Assembly (NCBI RefSeq): GCF_000469385.1 | Contig: NZ_KI271332.1 | Location: forward strand, 38,370 to 89,863 | DNA: 51,494 nt | Direction of reading: 5' to 3' | DNA from: Leptotrichia sp. oral taxon 879 str. F0557 | GTDB taxonomy: Bacteria; Fusobacteriota; Fusobacteriia; Fusobacteriales; Leptotrichiaceae | In this document: positions 32,524 through 41,170 of the stretch, piece by piece | Position numbering within the stretch: position 1 is the stretch's first letter | How the letters are laid out: every line of letters starts with the position of its first letter | The notes under the pieces: model-generated | Database searches by the model: none | The model's input: only the letters and a program-made list of their open reading frames with translations | What the model was told of the DNA's origin: nothing | Translations under genes and position numbers: made by a program

Positions 32524-35508
32524 ATGGCTAAAAATATGGAACTGAATATAGTTATGAGTGCGGCTGTAGCAGGAGCATTGACTGGAATGGCACAGGTTGC
32601 AAATGCTATGAAAAATACAGCAAAAAGTGCAGAGGAATTAGGAAAAAAGGCTAAGGAACTGGAAAAGGCTCAAAGAGCTTTGGAAAAAGTCGAAAAATTA
32701 AAAAGTGCTTATGTAAATGTAAGCAAAGAACATCTTAATGCCGCAAGAAAACTTCACGAACTTAAAGAAGCATACAATAAGACAGGGCAAAGTAATACTG
32801 AACTTGCTAAAAAAATAAAAGAGCAGGAAAAAGTTGTAAACAGTTTAAACAAACAAAAAGAACGCCAAAAACATGTGTTTGAAGCCGCAAGAAGTGCTAT
32901 TGAGGGGGAGAATCAGAGTTTAGGAAGTTACAAGTCACAATTAACAAAAGTAAATTCTGAACTTGAAAAGATGAATAAACTAAAAGAAGCCCAAAAAAGA
33001 TACGAGGCTCGACAGGAGAACATTGGGAAAGTCAAAGCATTTGGCGACAGAACTTTTAATAGAGGAATGGCGACAGCTGGAGCATTGGCAGTACCTGTGA
33101 AGGTTTACATGGATGTTGAAGAAAGTCAGGCAGATTTACGAAAAATGTTAGGTAAAGAAGCGGAAAAATATTATGCAGACATTAGAAAAATTTCGGAAAA
33201 TTCACCATTATCTCAACCAGAACTATATGAAATTGCTGGCTCGTTAGCACAGTCAGGAATAGTAGGAAATCAAATTGTTGAATACACAAATAAAGCTCAA
33301 CAATTAAAGGTTGCGTTTGATATGTCTACACAGGAAGCGGGACAGTTTTTAGCAAAAACAAAAGAACAGTTAGGATTAACGAAAAAAGAAGTATTTTCAT
33401 TTGCTGATACTATCAATTATATGTCTGATAATACCGCTTCTGTTGCTGCACAGTTAGTGGATTTTTCTCAGAGAGTAGGTTCTGTGGCAAGGACTGCTAA
33501 TGTATCAAAAGAAGCAAACATTGCATTAGGGGCAACTCTAATTGCGGCAGGTACAGAGGCAAATGTTGCGGCGACAGGGATAAAACAGTTATATTTGGAG
33601 CTAGGAAAAGGGGCAGATACCAAAAAAAAAGCAAATGCTTTTGAGTTTTTAGGAATAAATGGAGAGACTTTAGCGCATGATATGGCGAGAGATGCCGAAG
33701 GAACAATTCTGAAAGTTTTAGAAAAAATAAAGAGTTCTCACGCTGGAGATAAAATAGGATTATTGACTGATATATTTGGCGAACAAGCTGCGAATAGTAT
33801 AGCTACATTGGCAAACGACACTGATAAGTTAAGAGAAAATTTGTCAAAAGCTAAATCTGAAATGGCAAACGGTGCTGTTGAACGAGAATACGCCGAAAGA
33901 ATGAAAACATTGGGAACACAATTGAAAATTGCTAAAAACCAAATGATGAATGTTTTGGCAGATTTAGGAATGGCTCTAGCACCTACTATAAAAAGTGCAT
34001 TGGAAGCCTTAACACCAATGATAAAGAAAGTTGCTGAATGGATAAGACAAAATCCAAAACTAGCATCAGGAATTATGAAGGCAGTAGCGGGCTTTGCTTT
34101 ATTATCGCTGGGAGTTGGTGGAGCTATAAAAGTATTTTCTCCTTTGTTTAGCACTATATCCAAAGGAATCTTGATATTCGATAAATTTAAAATCGCTGGA
34201 AATTTTGCCAGTGGACTTAAAACAGCATTTCCGATTATCAACAAATTAGGACCAGCAATGATGAAGTTGGGACCGTTATTATCTAATCCTTATGTTTTGG
34301 CAGGAGCGGTCATTGTAGGCGTGTTTGTATTGTTGTATGCTAAATGGAAATGGTTTAGAGATGGAGTCAATAACGGAATAAAACAGATAGCCCCATATTT
34401 CAAAGCTGTAGCAGATACTTTAAAAAATGCCTTTGGTCAATTATCTTCATCAGCAACAAAAGAGTTAGGAAAAATGAAACCGTTATTCGATTCTTTAAAA
34501 CCTGTTTTATCTGTAATAGGTAATGTTATAAAATTTGTTATTATCGGAGCTTTAATGGAAATGAATATCCGTATAAAAGTACTTGTTGCAATTTTTAAAG
34601 TGGCATTTACCGCTATAAGAGTAGTCGTGATGGTTGTGTTTAATGTTATAAAAGCGATAGTTATAGGAGCGGTCGCAGTAATAAAAGCAGTTGTGAAAAC
34701 TCTGGCATTTGTTTTTAAGGCAGTTTGGACAGTAATCAAGGTAGTTGCTATCGCTGTGTGGGCTTTTATTGTTGTAAATATTATGGTAAGAGTTGCTATA
34801 ATTAAAGCTATTTTTAAACCTCTTGCACCATTTTTTAAAGCAATTTGGAATAAAATTAAAGCTGTAGCAATAGCTGTATGGAACGCTATAAAAAGTAAAG
34901 CAATGGCTTTGTGGGGAGGTTTAAAATCAGGATTTGAAGGGGTTAAATCTTCTTTTTCAACCAAGTGGAACGAAATGAAAACAAAGGCAACGGAAATCTG
35001 GAACGGAATAAAGAATGCTTTCGATACTATGGCTGGAGGATTAAAAAAAGCAATTGATGGAGTTGTAAATTATTTTACTGAAAAGTGGAATAAAATCAAG
35101 GATTTTGCTGCAAATAATCCGATATCAGCAGGTATAGGAGGGCTTTTTGGACAAAAATGGACAGGAACAAATTATTTTGAAGGTGGACTAACAACGGTAG
35201 CAGAACGTGGGGCAGAATTAATTCAAATACCAGGCAAACCAGCCTTCCTAGCCGAAAGTGAAATGCTTTTAAATCTTCCGAAAGGTACGAGAATACTTAA
35301 TAATTCTCAAACTAGGAGTACCTTGAGGGATAAAGTGGCTAATCTGAAAGACAGAGTAAGCAATTTAAAAGGCGGCAATTCTTATGGCGGAAACAATTAT
35401 TCAATCGTTATAAATGTAAATGGTGGAAATCCGTCGGAAGTCGAAAGAATTGTAAGGAAAGTAATAGCAGGAGACATAAACAAAAGGGAAAGGACGGCAT
35501 TTGGATAA
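32524..35508 (+). CDS. Tail tape-measure protein
   Basis: A 994-aa protein starting MAKNMELNIVMSAAVAGALT (AGGAGG upstream, preferred over the ATG at 32485). Long N-terminal coiled coil (about 15-180), a conserved domain (VEESQADLRKMLGKEAEKYY onward, 200-480), a hydrophobic membrane-like core (about 510-760, many I/V/A-rich helices), and a Gly-rich end (GLFGQKWTGTNYFEGG, ERGAELIQIPG). Sets tail length and probably helps DNA pass the membrane. Confidence 0.95.
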   Translation: MAKNMELNIVMSAAVAGALTGMAQVANAMKNTAKSAEELGKKAKELEKAQRALEKVEKLKSAYVNVSKEHLNAARKLHELKEAYNKTGQSNTELAKKIKEQEKVVNSLNKQKERQKHVFEAARSAIEGENQSLGSYKSQLTKVNSELEKMNKLKEAQKRYEARQENIGKVKAFGDRTFNRGMATAGALAVPVKVYMDVEESQADLRKMLGKEAEKYYADIRKISENSPLSQPELYEIAGSLAQSGIVGNQIVEYTNKAQQLKVAFDMSTQEAGQFLAKTKEQLGLTKKEVFSFADTINYMSDNTASVAAQLVDFSQRVGSVARTANVSKEANIALGATLIAAGTEANVAATGIKQLYLELGKGADTKKKANAFEFLGINGETLAHDMARDAEGTILKVLEKIKSSHAGDKIGLLTDIFGEQAANSIATLANDTDKLRENLSKAKSEMANGAVEREYAERMKTLGTQLKIAKNQMMNVLADLGMALAPTIKSALEALTPMIKKVAEWIRQNPKLASGIMKAVAGFALLSLGVGGAIKVFSPLFSTISKGILIFDKFKIAGNFASGLKTAFPIINKLGPAMMKLGPLLSNPYVLAGAVIVGVFVLLYAKWKWFRDGVNNGIKQIAPYFKAVADTLKNAFGQLSSSATKELGKMKPLFDSLKPVLSVIGNVIKFVIIGALMEMNIRIKVLVAIFKVAFTAIRVVVMVVFNVIKAIVIGAVAVIKAVVKTLAFVFKAVWTVIKVVAIAVWAFIVVNIMVRVAIIKAIFKPLAPFFKAIWNKIKAVAIAVWNAIKSKAMALWGGLKSGFEGVKSSFSTKWNEMKTKATEIWNGIKNAFDTMAGGLKKAIDGVVNYFTEKWNKIKDFAANNPISAGIGGLFGQKWTGTNYFEGGLTTVAERGAELIQIPGKPAFLAESEMLLNLPKGTRILNNSQTRSTLRDKVANLKDRVSNLKGGNSYGGNNYSIVINVNGGNPSEVERIVRKVIAGDINKRERTAFG

Positions 35509-35729
35509 TGGCAAAGGTAAAAGTGTATAGAACAGTTTCAGGCGACACTTGGGACTTGATAGCTTTTAAAATTTACGGAAGTGAAGGATATTTTCACGAC
35601 CTTATAAGAAGTAATTTAAGATTAATTGACATTGCCATTTTCGAGGCCAATATTCCTGTTATTATTCCTGAAATTTCAGAAGAAGTTGAAGATGACGAAA
35701 ATTTACCACCTTGGAAAAGAGGTGAATAG
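35508..35729 (+). CDS. Tail protein X (LysM-like)
   Basis: A 73-aa protein: VYRTVSGDTWDLIAFKIYGS, then VPVIIPE-like IPVIIPE, the P2 gpX pattern. Starts at the tape-measure stop (ATGG overlap). Links hub and tube. Confidence 0.93.
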   Translation: MAKVKVYRTVSGDTWDLIAFKIYGSEGYFHDLIRSNLRLIDIAIFEANIPVIIPEISEEVEDDENLPPWKRGE

Positions 35730-35731
35730 AA

Positions 35732-36586
35732 GTGGCTTTTGCTAGGAACATAAGAGTTGTGGTAATTTTTAATAAAGTTGATATTTCTGATGAGATAGCC
35801 CATTCTATTTCATCTCTAAACTATACTGATAACTCTAAGAATGCAATAGATGACTTGGAGCTGGAACTTGAAAATTTGGATTATCGCTGGCTTAAAGAAT
35901 GGTATCCTGACGAAAATGCTCAATTACTTGTTGGGATTCATGAAGAGCTGGAAAATGAAACTAATTTTTTGGATTTAGGAACTTTTTATGTGGATGAGCC
36001 GACATTTGAAAATAACAGGCTTAATTTGAAATGTTTGGCTTTACCATTAGACCAGAATATTAGAGACCAAAAGAATAGTGTCGCTTGGGAAAATATAACT
36101 TTGAAAGAGCTTGTTACACAGATTGCCAATAAGCATGAAATGAATGCAGAAATATATGCAGATAACGAATTTTTTGGAAGACTCGACCAAAATCAAGAAA
36201 CAGATTTGGCTTTTATTAACAGAGTTGTCAAGGAAACAGGGCTGAATATGAAAGTGTCTGATGACAAGATAATCATTTTTGATGACGAAGAAATGGAAAA
36301 GAATGATACTGTTGAGATTTTTAATATTAATGATGAAAGAATCAGAAGTTTTAGCTTGAAAAAGAAAAATAAGGAAATTTATGATAATGTTGAAGTTTCC
36401 TATTATGATCCTGATAAGAAAAAAGTTATTAAGGAAATTATTACAAAAAAAGAGCTTGAAAAACGTAATCAAGTTACAACTGAAAGTTCAGAAGAAAAAT
36501 CATCAGAAAATAAAAAATCAAAGAACAGTAGCAACTCTTCTAAAAATAAGAAGTCCAGTAAAAAGGTTAAATCCAAGAAAAAATAA
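35732..36586 (+). CDS. Baseplate hub protein D, N-terminal part
   Basis: A 284-aa protein, start GTG. P2 gpD-type: VVIFNKVDISDEIAHSISSL, NYTDNSKNAIDDLELELEN, DLGTFYVDEPTFENNRL, and ITLKELVTQIANKHEM. From about residue 240 it becomes Lys/Ser-rich (SSENKKSKNSSNSSKNKKSS), and it stops before the C-terminal domain of the family, which is encoded in the next ORF. The stop follows an A6 run. Confidence 0.88.
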   Translation: MAFARNIRVVVIFNKVDISDEIAHSISSLNYTDNSKNAIDDLELELENLDYRWLKEWYPDENAQLLVGIHEELENETNFLDLGTFYVDEPTFENNRLNLKCLALPLDQNIRDQKNSVAWENITLKELVTQIANKHEMNAEIYADNEFFGRLDQNQETDLAFINRVVKETGLNMKVSDDKIIIFDDEEMEKNDTVEIFNINDERIRSFSLKKKNKEIYDNVEVSYYDPDKKKVIKEIITKKELEKRNQVTTESSEEKSSENKKSKNSSNSSKNKKSSKKVKSKKK

Positions 36587-36597
36587 GAGGTAAAAAA

Positions 36598-37146
36598 ATG
36601 AGCTACGCGTCTTTTAAAAAGGAAAAAAGCAAAAAAACAGGAAGTGGAAAATCCAAAAAAAAAGGCAAAACGATTAAGGAATCAAAAGAGAAATTAAAAA
36701 AGAAAGCAAAAAGTAAAAAAAGTAGAGGCAAAAAAGAAAAAACTTTAAAAGTTAAGACAAAAGGAAAAAGTACAGCCAAGAAAGTAGCTAAGAAAACATT
36801 AAAAGAAAACATGAAACAGGAATATCAGATAACTTTAAATGTTGACGGAAATACTAAATACTTGGCTGGAGCAATAATAGAATTAGATGAGAGTTGGGGA
36901 AAATTTGAAGGAAAGTATGTTATAGATAAAGTAACGCATAATGTAACTGGCGACTACACTTGTGAAATCAATGCTATGAAACTTGGAGCCAGAGAAAACG
37001 CCGAACAAAATGCGATTGCCCAGACTAAAGAGGAACAACGGCAAAAAGAAGCAGAAAAACAGGCTAAATCTAAAAACAAAAAAGGTAGAAGTAGTAAGAG
37101 TTCTAGCAAGAAAAGAGGACGAAAAGCCAGAAATAAGAAGAAGTAA
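36598..37146 (+). CDS. Baseplate hub protein D, C-terminal part (split gene)
   Basis: A 182-aa protein: Lys-rich head (about 1-78), then QEYQITLNVDGNTKYLAGAI, FEGKYVIDKVTHNVTGDYTC and EINAMKLG (about 80-135), the terminal domain of gpD-like proteins, then another Lys/Ser/Arg-rich tail. It lies in the -1 frame relative to the upstream half, 11 bases away, with GAGGT before its ATG. Either two interacting halves or one protein joined by frameshifting. Confidence 0.75.
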   Translation: MSYASFKKEKSKKTGSGKSKKKGKTIKESKEKLKKKAKSKKSRGKKEKTLKVKTKGKSTAKKVAKKTLKENMKQEYQITLNVDGNTKYLAGAIIELDESWGKFEGKYVIDKVTHNVTGDYTCEINAMKLGARENAEQNAIAQTKEEQRQKEAEKQAKSKNKKGRSSKSSSKKRGRKARNKKK

Positions 37147-37153
37147 ATTATTT

Positions 37154-37190
37154 ATAGGACAATTACAATTAAATATAATAACTGTGATTT
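37154..37190. repeat. Cassette 1 left boundary repeat
   Basis: Starts ATAGGACAATTACAATTAAA and ends TAATAACTGTGATTT (37176-37190). The start is directly repeated at 38227. The end is the exact inverse of AAATCACAGTTATTA at 38183-38197. Confidence 0.7.
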
Positions 37191-37230
37191 GTAATATTTT
37201 GATATTATTCAAAAAAACTCTAAATTTCTG

Positions 37231-37280
37231 TTGCACTTTTGCTACTTTTAAGATATAATTTAGTTGTCAAATGATAACTA
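37231..37280 (+). promoter_or_regulatory. Toxin-antitoxin promoter and operator
   Basis: TTGCAC (37231-37236), 17 bp, TATAAT (37254-37259). Directly downstream is the near-palindrome TAGTTGTCA-AA-TGATAACTA (37261-37280, one mismatch), a probable autoregulatory operator. Confidence 0.78.
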
Positions 37281-37294
37281 GAGGAGGTAGCGAT

Positions 37295-37786
37295 ATGGAA
37301 AAAATAATAAATGTTGCTCAATATATTTTTAATGAATATAAAAGAGTGACAGGAGAAATTATTGATGAAATGAAATTACAGAAGTTGCTGTATTTTTCGC
37401 AAAGGGAAACAATTGCTATTTTAAATGAACCTCTTTTTAATGAGACATTTGAAGGCTGGAAGTATGGACCTGTGTCAAGAGAGGTACGAACTTCTTACAC
37501 AACAGATGGAATAAACTATGAAACAGAAGACATAAAAAGTGAAAGTAAATACATAATAAACAATGTAATTCAAGAATACGGAGCATTAGCATCGTGGAAG
37601 TTAAGTGCATTAACACATAAGGAAATTTCTTGGCTCAATTCTCGAAAAGGGCTTAAAAAAGAAGAAAACGGAAGGATTAAAATTCAAACTGAAGATATAA
37701 GAGAAGACGCAAAGAAAGTAAGGCCTTATGACTATGTGTGGGATATGTACTATGATGAATTTGACGACTATGAAGCGGTGGTTTGA
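37295..37786 (+). CDS. Panacea-domain (SocA/DUF4065) antitoxin
   Basis: A 163-aa protein starting MEKIINVAQYIFNEYKRVTG. Panacea features: MKLQKLLYFSQRETIAILNE, PLFNETFEGWKYGPVSREVR, then LTHKEISWLNSRKG. Panacea proteins are antitoxins paired with varied toxins. GGAGG precedes the ATG. The last base of its stop is the first base of the toxin ATG (TGATG). Confidence 0.88.
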   Translation: MEKIINVAQYIFNEYKRVTGEIIDEMKLQKLLYFSQRETIAILNEPLFNETFEGWKYGPVSREVRTSYTTDGINYETEDIKSESKYIINNVIQEYGALASWKLSALTHKEISWLNSRKGLKKEENGRIKIQTEDIREDAKKVRPYDYVWDMYYDEFDDYEAVV

Positions 37787-38166
37787 TGGTAGGAAAAATA
37801 GTTAGATGTTTAACTCAATATTACAATACAAGATTACATAGAAATTCAATAAAATCAAGACCTGCTTTAGTATTAAGAAGTCCTCAAAATGATGATTATG
37901 TGGTTCTTCCTATTTCAACTATTCCAAACAGAATAAATGTAAATCCAGTATATGATATAGAAATAGATCCATCAAAATTTCCTAAAATAAACTTGACTAG
38001 ATTATCGTATATTAGGACACATAGAATGGTTTCAATACCAATACAACAGATAGATAGAAGTGTTATAATAGGAGATTTGAAATCAGATTACGAAGAACTA
38101 TTTTTAGAAATAGCGGAAAAAGTAGAGCAGTTTCATAATGAAGTTATGGAAGGGTTGTTAGAATAG
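37786..38166 (+). CDS. PemK/MazF-like toxin
   Basis: A 126-aa protein: MVGKIVRCLTQYYNTRLHRN, KSRPALVLRSPQNDDYVVLP (the R-P-A-L-V-L and V-V-L-P-I-S strands), then LTRLSYIRTHRMVSIP. This matches the PemK/MazF fold of endoribonuclease toxins. Coupled to the Panacea antitoxin gene. Likely cleaves RNA if the antitoxin is lost. Confidence 0.82.
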   Translation: MVGKIVRCLTQYYNTRLHRNSIKSRPALVLRSPQNDDYVVLPISTIPNRINVNPVYDIEIDPSKFPKINLTRLSYIRTHRMVSIPIQQIDRSVIIGDLKSDYEELFLEIAEKVEQFHNEVMEGLLE

Positions 38167-38181
38167 CAATTAAAAATATTT

Positions 38182-38217
38182 AAAATCACAGTTATTAATT
38201 TAGCTGTGATTTTTTTA
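38182..38217 (+). terminator. Terminator of cassette 1, also its right boundary repeat
   Basis: AAATCACAG (38183-38191) / CTGTGATTT (38204-38212) and T run. Of 34 bases, about 30 are identical to the terminator at 40656-40690. Confidence 0.85.
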
Positions 38218-38226
38218 TGCAAAAAT

Positions 38227-38258
38227 ACAGGACAATGGCAATTGAATAATGACTGTGA
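38227..38258. repeat. Cassette 2 left boundary repeat
   Basis: Starts ACAGGACAATGGCAATTGAA (direct repeat of 37154) and ends TAATGACTGTGA (38247-38258), the exact inverse of TCACAGTCATTA at 40659-40670. The base that distinguishes the two left ends (A or G) is matched by the complementary base in the corresponding right end (T or C). Confidence 0.7.
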
Positions 38259-38313
38259 AAACTAAAATATTTGTTTTTTAAGTTTGGGATAGTGGTATAA
38301 TTAAAATTATTTT

Positions 38314-38341
38314 TTGATTTTCCTTAGAAATAGTGTATAAT
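38314..38341 (+). promoter_or_regulatory. Promoter of the 38373 gene
   Basis: TTGATT (38314-38319), 16 bp, TATAAT (38336-38341). A second, extended -10 (TGG TATAAT) lies at 38292-38300. Confidence 0.65.
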
Positions 38342-38372
38342 ATAGAAAATTATTTTTAGGAGGAATTAAAAA

Positions 38373-39212
38373 ATGGAAAAGAAAAAATGGTTTAAAACTT
38401 GGTGGGGAATATTATTCGCAATACTTTTTTGGGTTATTGCTATTCCAGTAATTATTTTTCAGAGCGGATTGTCAAAAAGGAATAAGATTTTATCTTTTAT
38501 AGGATTTGTTGTATTAGTTTTTGTTGTACTTGGGTCAATCCCGCCTGTAGATGAGCAAGTTTTAAAAGAAAATGAAATCAAGGCTGCTAAAGCTAAAGAG
38601 GATAAAGAAGCTAAAAAGAAAGCTGAAAAAGAGAAGAAACAAGCTGAATCAGCTAAGAAAAAAGAAAATAATTGTGTGTTAGGCATATTTTGCGAAGAGA
38701 AAGAAAATAAAGTTTCTCAAGATGAGTTGAAATATGAAGTGTTAAAAAATCAACTAGATGGTGAAAATGAAAATGGTAAAAGAGGTTATTTAGCTATATT
38801 AGTTAAAGATAATATAAAGAAACCTGCACTAAAAGAGGTTATGATTAAAGCAGCGAAAGACCATATAAAAGATTATGACATATTGTATGTTTTTGCTTAC
38901 GGGGATAAGAGATTTTGGAAGTTAGATAACGGAGCAACTCACGGTAAGTTGATTTATAGCAAAAAAGATGGGATTACAGAAAGTAACTTTGGAGCAAAAA
39001 ATGAAATACCAACAGATAAAGAAAAAGATATTTACATAGAGTACGTTATGCTTTTAAAAACTTCAAAATTATTAAAACCTGATATGACAGAAAAAGAATC
39101 AGAAGAAATGGAAAAAGAAGCCAAAATAAGAACAGCTACCAAAAATGGAATTTCACCTGAAAAAATGGAAGATATTTACAGTAAGATAATATTTTCTTAT
39201 CAAACTTACTAA
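38373..39212 (+). CDS. Membrane protein with coiled coil and cytoplasmic-type domain
   Basis: A 279-aa protein. Two membrane helices (about 9-30, TWWGILFAILFWVIAIPVII; about 39-56, ILSFIGFVVLVFVVLGS), a Lys/Glu/Ala coiled coil (62-97), and a soluble domain (105-279) with DYDILYVFAYGDKRFWKLDN. It has its own promoter. Possibly a lysogenic conversion or anti-phage membrane factor; no family is assigned. Confidence 0.78.
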   Translation: MEKKKWFKTWWGILFAILFWVIAIPVIIFQSGLSKRNKILSFIGFVVLVFVVLGSIPPVDEQVLKENEIKAAKAKEDKEAKKKAEKEKKQAESAKKKENNCVLGIFCEEKENKVSQDELKYEVLKNQLDGENENGKRGYLAILVKDNIKKPALKEVMIKAAKDHIKDYDILYVFAYGDKRFWKLDNGATHGKLIYSKKDGITESNFGAKNEIPTDKEKDIYIEYVMLLKTSKLLKPDMTEKESEEMEKEAKIRTATKNGISPEKMEDIYSKIIFSYQTY

Positions 39213-39228
39213 AATTTTAAAAAAGTTC

Positions 39229-39273
39229 TTGACTTTTTCGTACGGAAATGTTATTATAAATTATCGTACGGAA
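39229..39273 (+). promoter_or_regulatory. Promoter and repeated operator of the AbrB-like gene
   Basis: TTGACT (39229-39234), 17 bp, TATTAT (39252-39257). TCGTACGGAA is present twice (39238-39247 in the spacer and 39264-39273 after the -10), 26 bp apart centre to centre; each contains the palindrome CGTACG. Suggests autoregulation. Confidence 0.7.
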
Positions 39274-39284
39274 GAGGTGAGAAT

Positions 39285-39464
39285 ATGGAAGAGAAAATTC
39301 TGAAAAAAGTAAATTTTAATAAAGGAGGTACAGGTGGATATACCCCCAGAATGACATTAAATAGTAAATGGGTTAATGATATGGGTATAACTAAAGAAAA
39401 CAACGAAATTGAAGTGAGTTATAATAAAGAAAAAAAGGAAATTATCATAAGAAAAGCAAAATAA
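39285..39464 (+). CDS. AbrB/SpoVT-type small DNA-binding protein (antitoxin-like)
   Basis: A 59-aa protein: KVNFNKGGTGGYTPRMTLNS, then KWVNDMGITKENNEIEVSYN, the swapped-hairpin pattern of AbrB/MazE-type proteins found in addiction modules. GAGGTGA before the ATG. No obvious toxin follows, so it may be an orphan antitoxin or a regulator of the nearby genes. Confidence 0.8.
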   Translation: MEEKILKKVNFNKGGTGGYTPRMTLNSKWVNDMGITKENNEIEVSYNKEKKEIIIRKAK

Positions 39465-39501
39465 AAAATCCCCTCTCTCGTAACGAAACGAAAAAGAGGA
39501 C

Positions 39502-39540
39502 ATATAGTATAATGTACTTCGCAATACTATTATACTATAT
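39502..39540. other. Large AT hairpin
   Basis: A perfect 12-bp inverted repeat ATATAGTATAAT / ATTATACTATAT with a TTCG-containing centre. It also contains -10-like TATAAT. Just upstream is a weaker pair CCTCT (39471-39475) / AGAGG. Could terminate the AbrB transcript or be an operator for the following operon. Confidence 0.65.
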
Positions 39541-39578
39541 ATTCTCTTAAAAAACAAATATTTTAGGAGGAAATTTTT

Positions 39579-39878
39579 ATGACACTTAGACAAGAACTAG
39601 GATTTGAAATTACAGAAAGTTTATTGGACGAACACAATCACAAGTTAAAATCAACAAAAAAGGTAGTGTTTGGTTTATTAGAGGAAATGTACGAAATGCT
39701 GTCTAAAGAAAATTTGGATAAATTAATGGATTTGGAAGATGCTTTGGGCGAATATTATCAAACAATCAAAAGAGAATACTACAAAGCAGGGGCAAATATA
39801 GAAACATTTGTCCAAAGAAACGAAGAAAAGGAAGTTGCTGAAAGAGTGGCAAGAATTGAAAGAAAAAATATAGTATAA
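39579..39878 (+). CDS. Hypothetical helical protein
   Basis: A 99-aa acidic helical protein starting MTLRQELGFEITESLLDEHN. AGGAGG upstream. Forms an operon with the Bro-N gene (TAATG junction). Could be its regulatory partner. No family recognised. Confidence 0.7.
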   Translation: MTLRQELGFEITESLLDEHNHKLKSTKKVVFGLLEEMYEMLSKENLDKLMDLEDALGEYYQTIKREYYKAGANIETFVQRNEEKEVAERVARIERKNIV

Positions 39879-39892
39879 TGGAGGATAAAAGA

Positions 39893-40609
39893 ATGCACGA
39901 TTTAAAAGTTATAAATGATGAAAGATTTCAAATATTCAGTAAAGAAAATTTAGGAAGTGTAAGAACGATATTTGCTAGTAATCAAGTATGGTTTTGTATA
40001 AAAGATGTTTGCGACATATTAGAATTAACAAATCCTACTGTTGTAGCCAAGAGATTAGATGAAGATGAAGTGACTAAGTTTAACTTAGGGAGTAAATTTG
40101 GTATTACCAACTTCACAAACGAAAGTGGATTATATACTCTGATATTACGAAGTGATAAAAAAGAAGCAAAACCATTTAGAAAATGGATAACATCAGAAGT
40201 TATTCCAGCAATCAGAAAAACAGGAAAATATGAAGAGAAGAAAAAACCTCTTACACAGGCTGAATTAATTTTACAGCAGGCACAATGGATGGTAGAAGCT
40301 GAAAGCAGAATCAATAATATTGAGAACAATGTAATTGGACTTGCAGGTACTGTTCAAAACAACGACAAGAGCATAAAAAGATTGGAAAATAATCAAAGAA
40401 GAACAGTAACAAGCAACCATCTGACAGTAATAGCCTATGCCAATATAAAAGGGATAAAGCCAAAATCATACCACGCACCTTCTATAGGAAAGAAAGCGAC
40501 TAAGATATGCAGGGAAAAAGATTTATTGATAGGAACAACAGTTGACAGCCGATACGGACTAATAAATACTTATCCTGTTGAAGTTCTGGATGAAATATTT
40601 TTTGAATAG
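39893..40609 (+). CDS. Bro-N antirepressor-like protein
   Basis: A 238-aa protein starting MHDLKVINDERFQIFSKENL. Bro-N domain (about 15-110): VRTIFASNQVWFCIKDVCDI, LDEDEVTKFNLGS, ESGLYTLILRSDKKEAKPFR and KWITSEVIPAIRKTGKY. Then coiled coil and a C-terminal DNA-binding-like domain (VTSNHLTVIAYANIKGIKPK). The ATG at 39893 has GGAGG eight bases before; an earlier in-frame ATG at 39878 overlaps the preceding stop and that site. Second antirepressor of this prophage. Confidence 0.88.
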   Translation: MHDLKVINDERFQIFSKENLGSVRTIFASNQVWFCIKDVCDILELTNPTVVAKRLDEDEVTKFNLGSKFGITNFTNESGLYTLILRSDKKEAKPFRKWITSEVIPAIRKTGKYEEKKKPLTQAELILQQAQWMVEAESRINNIENNVIGLAGTVQNNDKSIKRLENNQRRTVTSNHLTVIAYANIKGIKPKSYHAPSIGKKATKICREKDLLIGTTVDSRYGLINTYPVEVLDEIFFE

Positions 40610-40655
40610 TAATAGAAAATTTACTAGACAAAATTGAAAATTAAATAGAAACATT

Positions 40656-40690
40656 AAATCACAGTCATTAATTTGATTGTGATTTTTTTG
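40656..40690 (+). terminator. Terminator of cassette 2, also its right boundary repeat
   Basis: AAATCACAGTC (40656-40666) / GATTGTGATTT (40675-40685), 11 bp with one G-U, then T run. It lies only 30 bp before the spike gene start. A degenerate copy of the left boundary (CTAGACAAAATTGAAAATTA) precedes it at about 40624. Confidence 0.85.
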
Positions 40691-40720
40691 TTACAAAAAG
40701 TGATAAGGCAGGTGGTTAAA

Positions 40721-41170
40721 TTGATTGAAACATTAAAAGCAGGAGAAGTAAGTGCGATAGATTCAAAAACTGGAAAAGTAAGAGTTCTGTTAAAGGGCGA
40801 TGATGATAAGACAACGGACTGGCTTAATGTATTAGTTCCTTATTCTGAAAGCCACAGTGATAATTATACACTTGGACTAGGACAAACTGTTTACTGCTTA
40901 TTCTTTTCAGAAATGCCTGAACAAGGAGTTGTGCTTGGTTGTCCTATGCGTGGTGCTTCTAGTAGTGAAAGTGAAGTAAAAAGAACTTTTTCTGATGGCG
41001 GAAGTTGGAGCTACGATAAAAATACATTGACTTTGAATATCGGCAAAATTTTAATTAATGGAGATTTAGAAGTCAGCGGAACTACAAAAACTGGTGGAAG
41101 TATTAATCTTAATACACATAAACATAGTGGCATTATGATTGGCGGCGACAAGACAGGAGGACCTGAATAA
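40721..41170 (+). CDS. Baseplate spike protein V
   Basis: A 149-aa protein, TTG start (MIETLKAGEVSAIDSKTGKV). OB-fold part KVRVLLKGDDDKTTDWLNVL, QTVYCLFFSEMPEQGVVLGC, a beta-helix stalk (LNIGKILINGDLEVSG), and the His-containing tip NLNTHKHSGIMIGGDKTGGP that binds iron in P2-type spikes. GGTGG upstream. The reading from 40673 would start inside the terminator. Confidence 0.9.
   Translation: MIETLKAGEVSAIDSKTGKVRVLLKGDDDKTTDWLNVLVPYSESHSDNYTLGLGQTVYCLFFSEMPEQGVVLGCPMRGASSSESEVKRTFSDGGSWSYDKNTLTLNIGKILINGDLEVSGTTKTGGSINLNTHKHSGIMIGGDKTGGPE

What the first reader, a model, noticed from the sequence alone, without database searches (positions are those of the whole stretch)
36560..36620. Baseplate hub gene split in Lys-rich linkers at a poly-A run
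The gpD-like hub is divided: N-terminal part ends at 36586, C-terminal domain starts at 36598 in the -1 frame. Both sides of the break are Lys/Ser-rich. The A6 run (36578-36583) directly before the stop and the A7 run (36592-36598) would, after a -1 slip, give one continuous protein. Either translational or transcriptional slippage makes a fused form, or the hub works as two polypeptides.
Basis: partly seen in the sequence, partly recalled or inferred. Interest (0 to 1): 0.62.

Follow-up and report, generated by a model that had tools for sequence, protein, structure and literature searches.

The report
Phage baseplate hub made in two pieces
In this Leptotrichia prophage the protein at the centre of the phage tail tip is encoded as two neighbouring, separately started genes rather than one; close relatives, including infectious Fusobacterium phages, share the arrangement, so it is a real two-part hub and not a ribosome-slippage fusion, and a second, unrelated tail type in the same bacteria has split its hub at the same kind of place.

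Summary
The coordinates are right: the gpD/gp27-type hub is in two ORFs (35732-36586; 36598-37146, -1 frame), with Lys/Ser-rich ends at the break. Slippage is rejected. All eight same-genus copies are split, but the relative frame is not kept: hub2 starts 9, 10 or 11 nt after the stop because the A-run between its Shine-Dalgarno and ATG is A5, A6 or A7. In the eight other Leptotrichia copies a -1 slip at the same AAAAAA ends after 3-10 residues. What is conserved is TAA-GAGG-spacer-ATG. Poly-A runs are at chance level here. Both parts are under strong purifying selection. JD-Fnp2/3/5, infectious contractile-tailed Fusobacterium phages, carry the same pair in the +1 frame. Split hubs form one clade (100/99) whose sister is a single 362-aa hub with an uninterrupted Lys/Ser-rich linker at the same point. 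Best explanation: one old gene fission inside that linker, in the second tube barrel; two coupled polypeptides reassemble into one hub. Unexpected: an unrelated XkdQ/YqbQ-type hub in five Leptotrichia genomes is split at the equivalent place, also with Lys-rich ends and a single-ORF, Lys-linker relative. So hub fission happened at least twice in these hosts. Structural reassembly is inferred, not shown.

The parts
35508..35729 (+). Tail protein X / LysM-type baseplate gene upstream of the hub
   Evidence: Pfam Phage_tail_X 1.4e-5, phrog_46 9e-17
35732..36586 (+). hub1: N-terminal part of the baseplate hub (first tube barrel, middle domain, first strands of second tube barrel), 284 aa
   Evidence: phrog_52 2e-49 (profile 196-424 of 677), Phage_GPD 4.5e-7 (just below the curated cut-off); conserved in relatives; dN/dS 0.03-0.10
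36470..36583 (+). Lys/Ser-rich C-terminal tail of hub1 (QVTTESSEEKSSENKKSKNSSNSSKNKKSSKKVKSKKK), Leptotrichia-specific
   Evidence: 13 of 38 residues K/R; absent in the other split relatives, whose hub1 ends at ...ELEKRN or a few residues later
36578..36583 (+). A6 run before the hub1 stop (codons AAA AAA); not a usable slippage site in the Leptotrichia relatives
   Evidence: -1 slip here opens hub2 only in this copy, 3-10 residues then stop in the 8 other Leptotrichia copies
36584..36591 (+). TAA stop of hub1 directly followed by Shine-Dalgarno GAGGT of hub2
   Evidence: TAAGAGG identical in all Leptotrichia copies; GAGGT, spacing 6
36592..36598 (+). A7 spacer running into the hub2 ATG; length varies A5/A6/A7 among relatives, changing the relative frame
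36598..37146 (+). hub2: C-terminal part of the hub (helix and last strands of second tube barrel) with Lys-rich N- and C-terminal tails, 182 aa
   Evidence: phrog_52 4e-12 (profile 408-556), phrog_20686 1.7e-44, YQBQ 2e-5 below cut-off; core dN/dS 0.015-0.21; element order in a low-confidence model matches the end of the single hub
40673..41170 (+). gpV-like baseplate spike, next tail gene; cargo genes 37271-40609 are inserted between hub2 and it
   Evidence: Apex motif 9.6e-6, phrog_6142 1e-9; order X-hub1-hub2-[cargo]-V-U-J conserved

Best explanation
The hub gene of this contractile-tailed Leptotrichia prophage underwent an old gene fission inside a Lys/Ser-rich linker of its second tube-type beta-barrel. 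It now makes two polypeptides, hub1 and hub2. Hub2 starts from its own ATG behind a Shine-Dalgarno placed directly on the hub1 stop codon, so the ribosome ending hub1 re-starts on hub2 and the two are made together. The chains then associate to rebuild the second barrel, giving a gp27/gpD-type trimeric hub of six chains. Shown: the split, its conservation, one clade, variable relative frame, conserved SD/start, purifying selection on both parts, tiling of one hub profile, infectious phages with the same pair. Inferred: coupled re-initiation, chain association in the virion, and that the Lys-rich tails are tolerated surface extensions.
For: Split in all 8 same-genus copies and in G021, G016, G038, IMG/VR contigs and JD-Fnp2/3/5. 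Relative frame 0 (six genomes plus L069), +1 (L002; JD-Fnp2, L075, L078) or -1 (window, L009, L010, L071-L074, L011, L077). GAGG plus ATG conserved in the genus; elsewhere stop and start overlap or touch (ATGA, TGATG, TGACAATG). Tree: 17 split rows one clade, 100/99; sister L012/L013 single ORF with intact Lys/Ser linker. dN/dS well below 1 for both parts. hub1 and hub2 cover successive parts of phrog_52 and of VgrG_rel. The profile of the family aligns nearly end to end with the one-chain R2 pyocin hub, E 1e-19, break in a loop. Single-hub model: linker 262-281 is the only stretch with pLDDT <50; fold matches Mu gp44, R2 pyocin and Milano hubs. JD-Fnp phages are infectious contractile-tail isolates (PMC9670143).
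Against: No proteomics of any split-hub virion was found, so a minor fused form cannot be formally excluded. In several relatives outside the genus the frame is -1 with overlapping or touching stop/start, where frameshifting is not excluded by frame alone. Hub2 alone was modelled only with low confidence (pLDDT 60.5), and a two-chain model could not be run.
Confidence: 0.92

Rival explanations
1. Programmed -1 slippage (ribosomal or transcriptional) at the A6 run makes a fused hub.
For: In this copy the -1 frame is open into hub2 (187 codons).
Against: Relative frame not conserved; -1 slip gives only 3-10 residues in the eight other Leptotrichia copies; no proper slippery heptamer; no stimulatory structure; A-runs at chance; the A7 run is downstream of the stop.
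Confidence: 0.02
2. Sequencing error or a recent frameshift mutation broke a normal single-ORF hub in this strain.
For: Draft genome of 79 contigs; homopolymers nearby.
Against: Stop, SD and start conserved across the genus and the split across the clade, including finished genomes such as L. hongkongensis NZ_AP019846.1. Even an error in the A7 length would leave TAA between the two ORFs.
Confidence: 0.01
3. Hub2 is not a hub part but a separate basic protein that took over another role (for example DNA or tape-measure binding), and hub1 alone forms the hub.
For: Hub2 is very basic (32% K+R overall), with tails of variable length.
Against: Hub2 core aligns with the end of single-ORF hubs; strong purifying selection on the core; in L066 and L071 hub2 is little more than this core.
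Confidence: 0.04

Closest known systems
gp27/gpD-type baseplate hub (T4 gp27, Mu gp44, R2 pyocin hub, Pfam Phage_GPD)
   Same: Same fold in the single-ORF sister (Foldseek to 1wru, 6u5h, 8fqc), same gene order X-D-V-U-J, profile match to R2 pyocin hub over nearly its whole length.
   Different: Encoded by two genes here; break inside the second barrel. In T4 gp27 that barrel is already discontinuous in sequence (residues 207-239 plus 307-368, PMC3004832), so the break probably sits at a known insertion point (equivalence inferred).
Fusobacterium phages JD-Fnp2, JD-Fnp3, JD-Fnp5
   Same: Same split pair; in JD-Fnp2 and JD-Fnp5 annotated 'tail protein' and 'protein of unknown function DUF5048'; contractile-tailed infectious isolates (PMC9670143).
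   Different: Genes overlap by 8 nt and lie in the +1 frame; no Lys-rich tail on hub1.
Single-ORF hub of Fusobacteriales bacterium TD116_bin61 and G027 (L067, L012, L013)
   Same: Closest unsplit sister; about 40-45% identical to hub1 of split relatives; Lys/Ser-rich linker at the same point.
   Different: One 362-aa chain, linker uninterrupted.
XkdQ/YqbQ-type split hub of a second Leptotrichia tail module (L105-L109)
   Same: Hub broken at the equivalent place, Lys-rich ends on both sides, single-ORF relative with Lys-rich linker (L115, 376 aa).
   Different: No BLASTP relation to window hub1, PF24032/phrog_400 family; TAATG 1-nt overlap, always -1 frame.
Translationally coupled gene pairs seen as frame transitions (PMC3711429)
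   Same: Stop and start within about 10 nt across a family, the signature used there for coupling.
   Different: Here the pair comes from fission of one structural domain; coupling itself not measured.

Membership tests
gp27/gpD-type baseplate hub | Sequence/profile match to hub families | tested here: met
   phrog_52 for both parts; R2 pyocin hub E 1e-19 with the family profile; Phage_GPD 29.8 bits, cut-off 30.1, marginal
gp27/gpD-type baseplate hub | Two tube-type beta-barrels, gp27-like fold | tested here: met
   For the single-ORF sister L067: pLDDT 78.8, Foldseek 1wru 3e-16, 6u5h 8.5e-17; hub2 alone shows the same element order at low confidence
gp27/gpD-type baseplate hub | Position between tail protein X and spike V in a baseplate operon | tested here: met
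gp27/gpD-type baseplate hub | Single polypeptide | tested here: not met
   Two ORFs in the whole clade; works like such a hub but as a split version
gp27/gpD-type baseplate hub | Trimer at the tube tip in the virion | not testable with these tools
   needs cryo-EM or virion proteomics
Programmed -1 frameshift gene | Conserved frame relation and shift site | tested here: not met
   Frames 0, +1, -1 all occur; dead end in 8 other Leptotrichia copies
Programmed -1 frameshift gene | Stimulatory structure or slippery heptamer | tested here: not met
   z 0.3 and 0.8; G AAA AAA T only
Translationally coupled pair | Conserved close stop/start with ribosome-binding site | tested here: met
   Start lies between -8 and +11 nt of the end of the stop in all split copies; GAGGT SD
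Translationally coupled pair | Downstream translation depends on upstream translation | not testable with these tools
   reporter assay needed
XkdQ/YqbQ hub (PF24032) | Profile match above curated cut-off | tested here: not met
   window hub2 24.5 bits, cut-off 27; met by the second Leptotrichia module, 108.9 and 40.2 bits

The most novel reading that the evidence does not exclude
Leptotrichia-type hosts repeatedly select for two-chain hubs with Lys-rich tails: two unrelated hub families gained a Lys-rich insert at the same barrel loop and then split there, because the free basic tails do something in the virion (bind DNA, tape measure or an acidic baseplate partner, or ease release of the tip), rather than being a harmless result of A-rich linkers that acquire stops and starts easily.
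Probability: 0.18. Interest if true: 0.55.

Novelty: new variant of a known kind. Interest (0 to 1): 0.4.

Why it matters
The hub is one of the most conserved parts of contractile tails, tailocins and type VI secretion. That it can be cut inside a barrel domain, keep working in infectious phages, and do so twice independently in one host group, shows a tolerated break point in this fold and a clear route for gene fission (Lys-rich linker, then stop plus SD/start). It also explains small 'unknown function' proteins such as phrog_20686 / 'DUF5048' as hub parts and warns against calling frameshifts from a single genome.

Tried and rejected
Slippage and sequencing error rejected. Searching viral contigs with the single-ORF hub found nothing. 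Direct PDB sequence search with hub1 gave nothing useful; the family profile did. Hub2 structure model is low confidence and was not used for fold search. Paper searches for split hubs found no precedent, but only open-licence papers were searched.

Full report
Observation. The sequence is as described: hub1 35732-36586, TAA at 36584-36586, A6 at 36578-36583, A7 at 36592-36598, hub2 from ATG 36598 to 37146 in the -1 frame. Runs of six or more A are common here: 204 on the + strand of the window, and hub2 has 8 where codon shuffling gives 8.4. The A7 run lies behind the stop and cannot help a ribosome past it.

Identity. Hub1 and hub2 match successive parts of one tail-protein family (phrog_52: 196-424 and 408-556) and of VgrG_rel (108-180 and 252-346, weak). 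Hub1 matches Phage_GPD just under its cut-off. The gene order X, hub1, hub2, V, U, J is that of a contractile-tail baseplate operon and is kept in relatives.

Relatives. All eight same-genus genomes that carry this hub (window included) have it in two ORFs. In Leptotrichia the junction reads ...AAA AAA TAA GAGG..., then ATG at +9 (six genomes and L069), +10 (L002) or +11 (window) from the end of the stop. In the window, L002, L004 and L069 the difference is purely the A-run length in the spacer (A7, A6, A5, A5). Outside the genus the stop and start overlap or touch: TGATG (L009), ATGA (L011, L077), TGACAATG or TGATAATG (L010, L071-L074), 8-nt overlap (JD-Fnp2, L075, L078). Thus all three relative frames occur. 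A -1 slip at the A6 opens hub2 only in the window; in the eight other Leptotrichia copies it ends after 3-10 residues. RNA folding around the junction is no better than shuffles. Slippage is therefore rejected as the way the hub is made.

How hub2 is started. The window has GAGGT six bases before the ATG. A match of five or more bases is found before 11% of all ATGs but is typical of the neighbouring tail genes. In JD-Fnp2 a GAGGTAAAA.ATG string lies inside the last codons of hub1. The SD-start unit is thus probably older than the Lys-rich tail of hub1, which exists only in Leptotrichia. Stop and start so close together across a family is the signature that was used to recognise translational coupling (PMC3711429); coupling itself was not measured.

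Function kept. dN/dS against the window is 0.03-0.10 for hub1 and 0.015-0.21 for the hub2 core where it could be computed (several comparisons are saturated). Infectious contractile-tailed Fusobacterium nucleatum phages JD-Fnp2, 3 and 5 have the pair (PMC9670143), so the split is compatible with real virions, though no virion proteome was found.

Origin. In a tree of the shared N-terminal part, 17 split rows form one clade (100/99) and the nearest single-ORF rows (L012, L013) are their sister (midpoint root). Those single hubs carry an uninterrupted Lys/Ser-rich linker right after the ELEEKRN motif, where the split hubs break. All more distant hubs seen here, and R2 pyocin and Mu, are one chain, so fission is derived. 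A model of the single hub (L067) has pLDDT 78.8; its only stretch under 50 is linker residues 262-281, and it matches Mu gp44, R2 pyocin, Milano, P1 and T4 hubs. Three strands of the second barrel come before the linker and a helix plus remaining strands after it. In T4 gp27 the second barrel is likewise formed from two sequence segments (207-239 and 307-368; PMC3004832). The break therefore most likely sits at a natural insertion point of that barrel, and hub2 must complete the barrel in trans. This last step is inference.

A second case. A profile search with phrog_20686 found another small hub2-like ORF in five Leptotrichia genomes. It belongs to an XkdQ/YqbQ-type hub (PF24032: hub1' covers 1-245, hub2' 186-286 of 294) in a different tail module with DUF2577 and sheath-initiator genes. 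Hub1' has no BLASTP relation to window hub1. It ends in a Lys-rich tail and hub2' starts with one, joined by TAATG in all five. A relative in the same family (L115, 65% identical) is one 376-aa ORF with an intact Lys-rich linker, while Fusobacteriaceae versions have a short linker. So two unrelated hub families gained a Lys-rich linker at the equivalent place and split there. The simple reading is mutational: A-rich Lys linkers are free to vary and easily gain stops, ATGs and purine-rich SD-like strings. A functional reason for free Lys tails is possible but untested; tails vary in length and are missing in several split relatives, which argues for tolerance. Because this second pair is always in the -1 frame, frame alone does not exclude frameshifting there.

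Verdict. Structural reassembly and coupling remain to be shown.

Noticed in passing
L105-L109 (e.g. L106:2081-3019 and 3019-3417): Second, unrelated split hub (XkdQ/YqbQ type) in five Leptotrichia genomes, same kind of break point, Lys-rich ends, TAATG junction; single-ORF relative L115.
   Followed up: partly
window 37271-38166: SocA/Panacea-domain antitoxin-like gene followed by an overlapping MazF/PemK-like gene (weak Pfam match), a likely toxin-antitoxin pair carried between hub2 and the spike gene.
   Followed up: partly
window 37146-40673: The gap between hub2 and spike V is a variable cargo site in Leptotrichia prophages (Panacea/MazF, holin-like, BRO-type genes come and go); in JD-Fnp2 a weak relative of the holin-like gene sits between X and hub1 instead.
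   Followed up: partly
L041 / L076 (IMGVR_UViG_2600254991_000001), hub1 about residue 68: Hub1 frame is interrupted in this one copy; could be a draft error or a decayed prophage.
   Followed up: no
L075 and L078, about 2985-3001: No ATG/GTG/TTG in frame at the start of hub1 in two JD-Fnp-like prophages; in L075 the nearest ATG behind a good SD is in another frame.
   Followed up: no
phrog_20686; 'DUF5048' in ON464760 and ON464762: A family of unknown function that these data identify as the C-terminal part of split hubs.
   Followed up: yes
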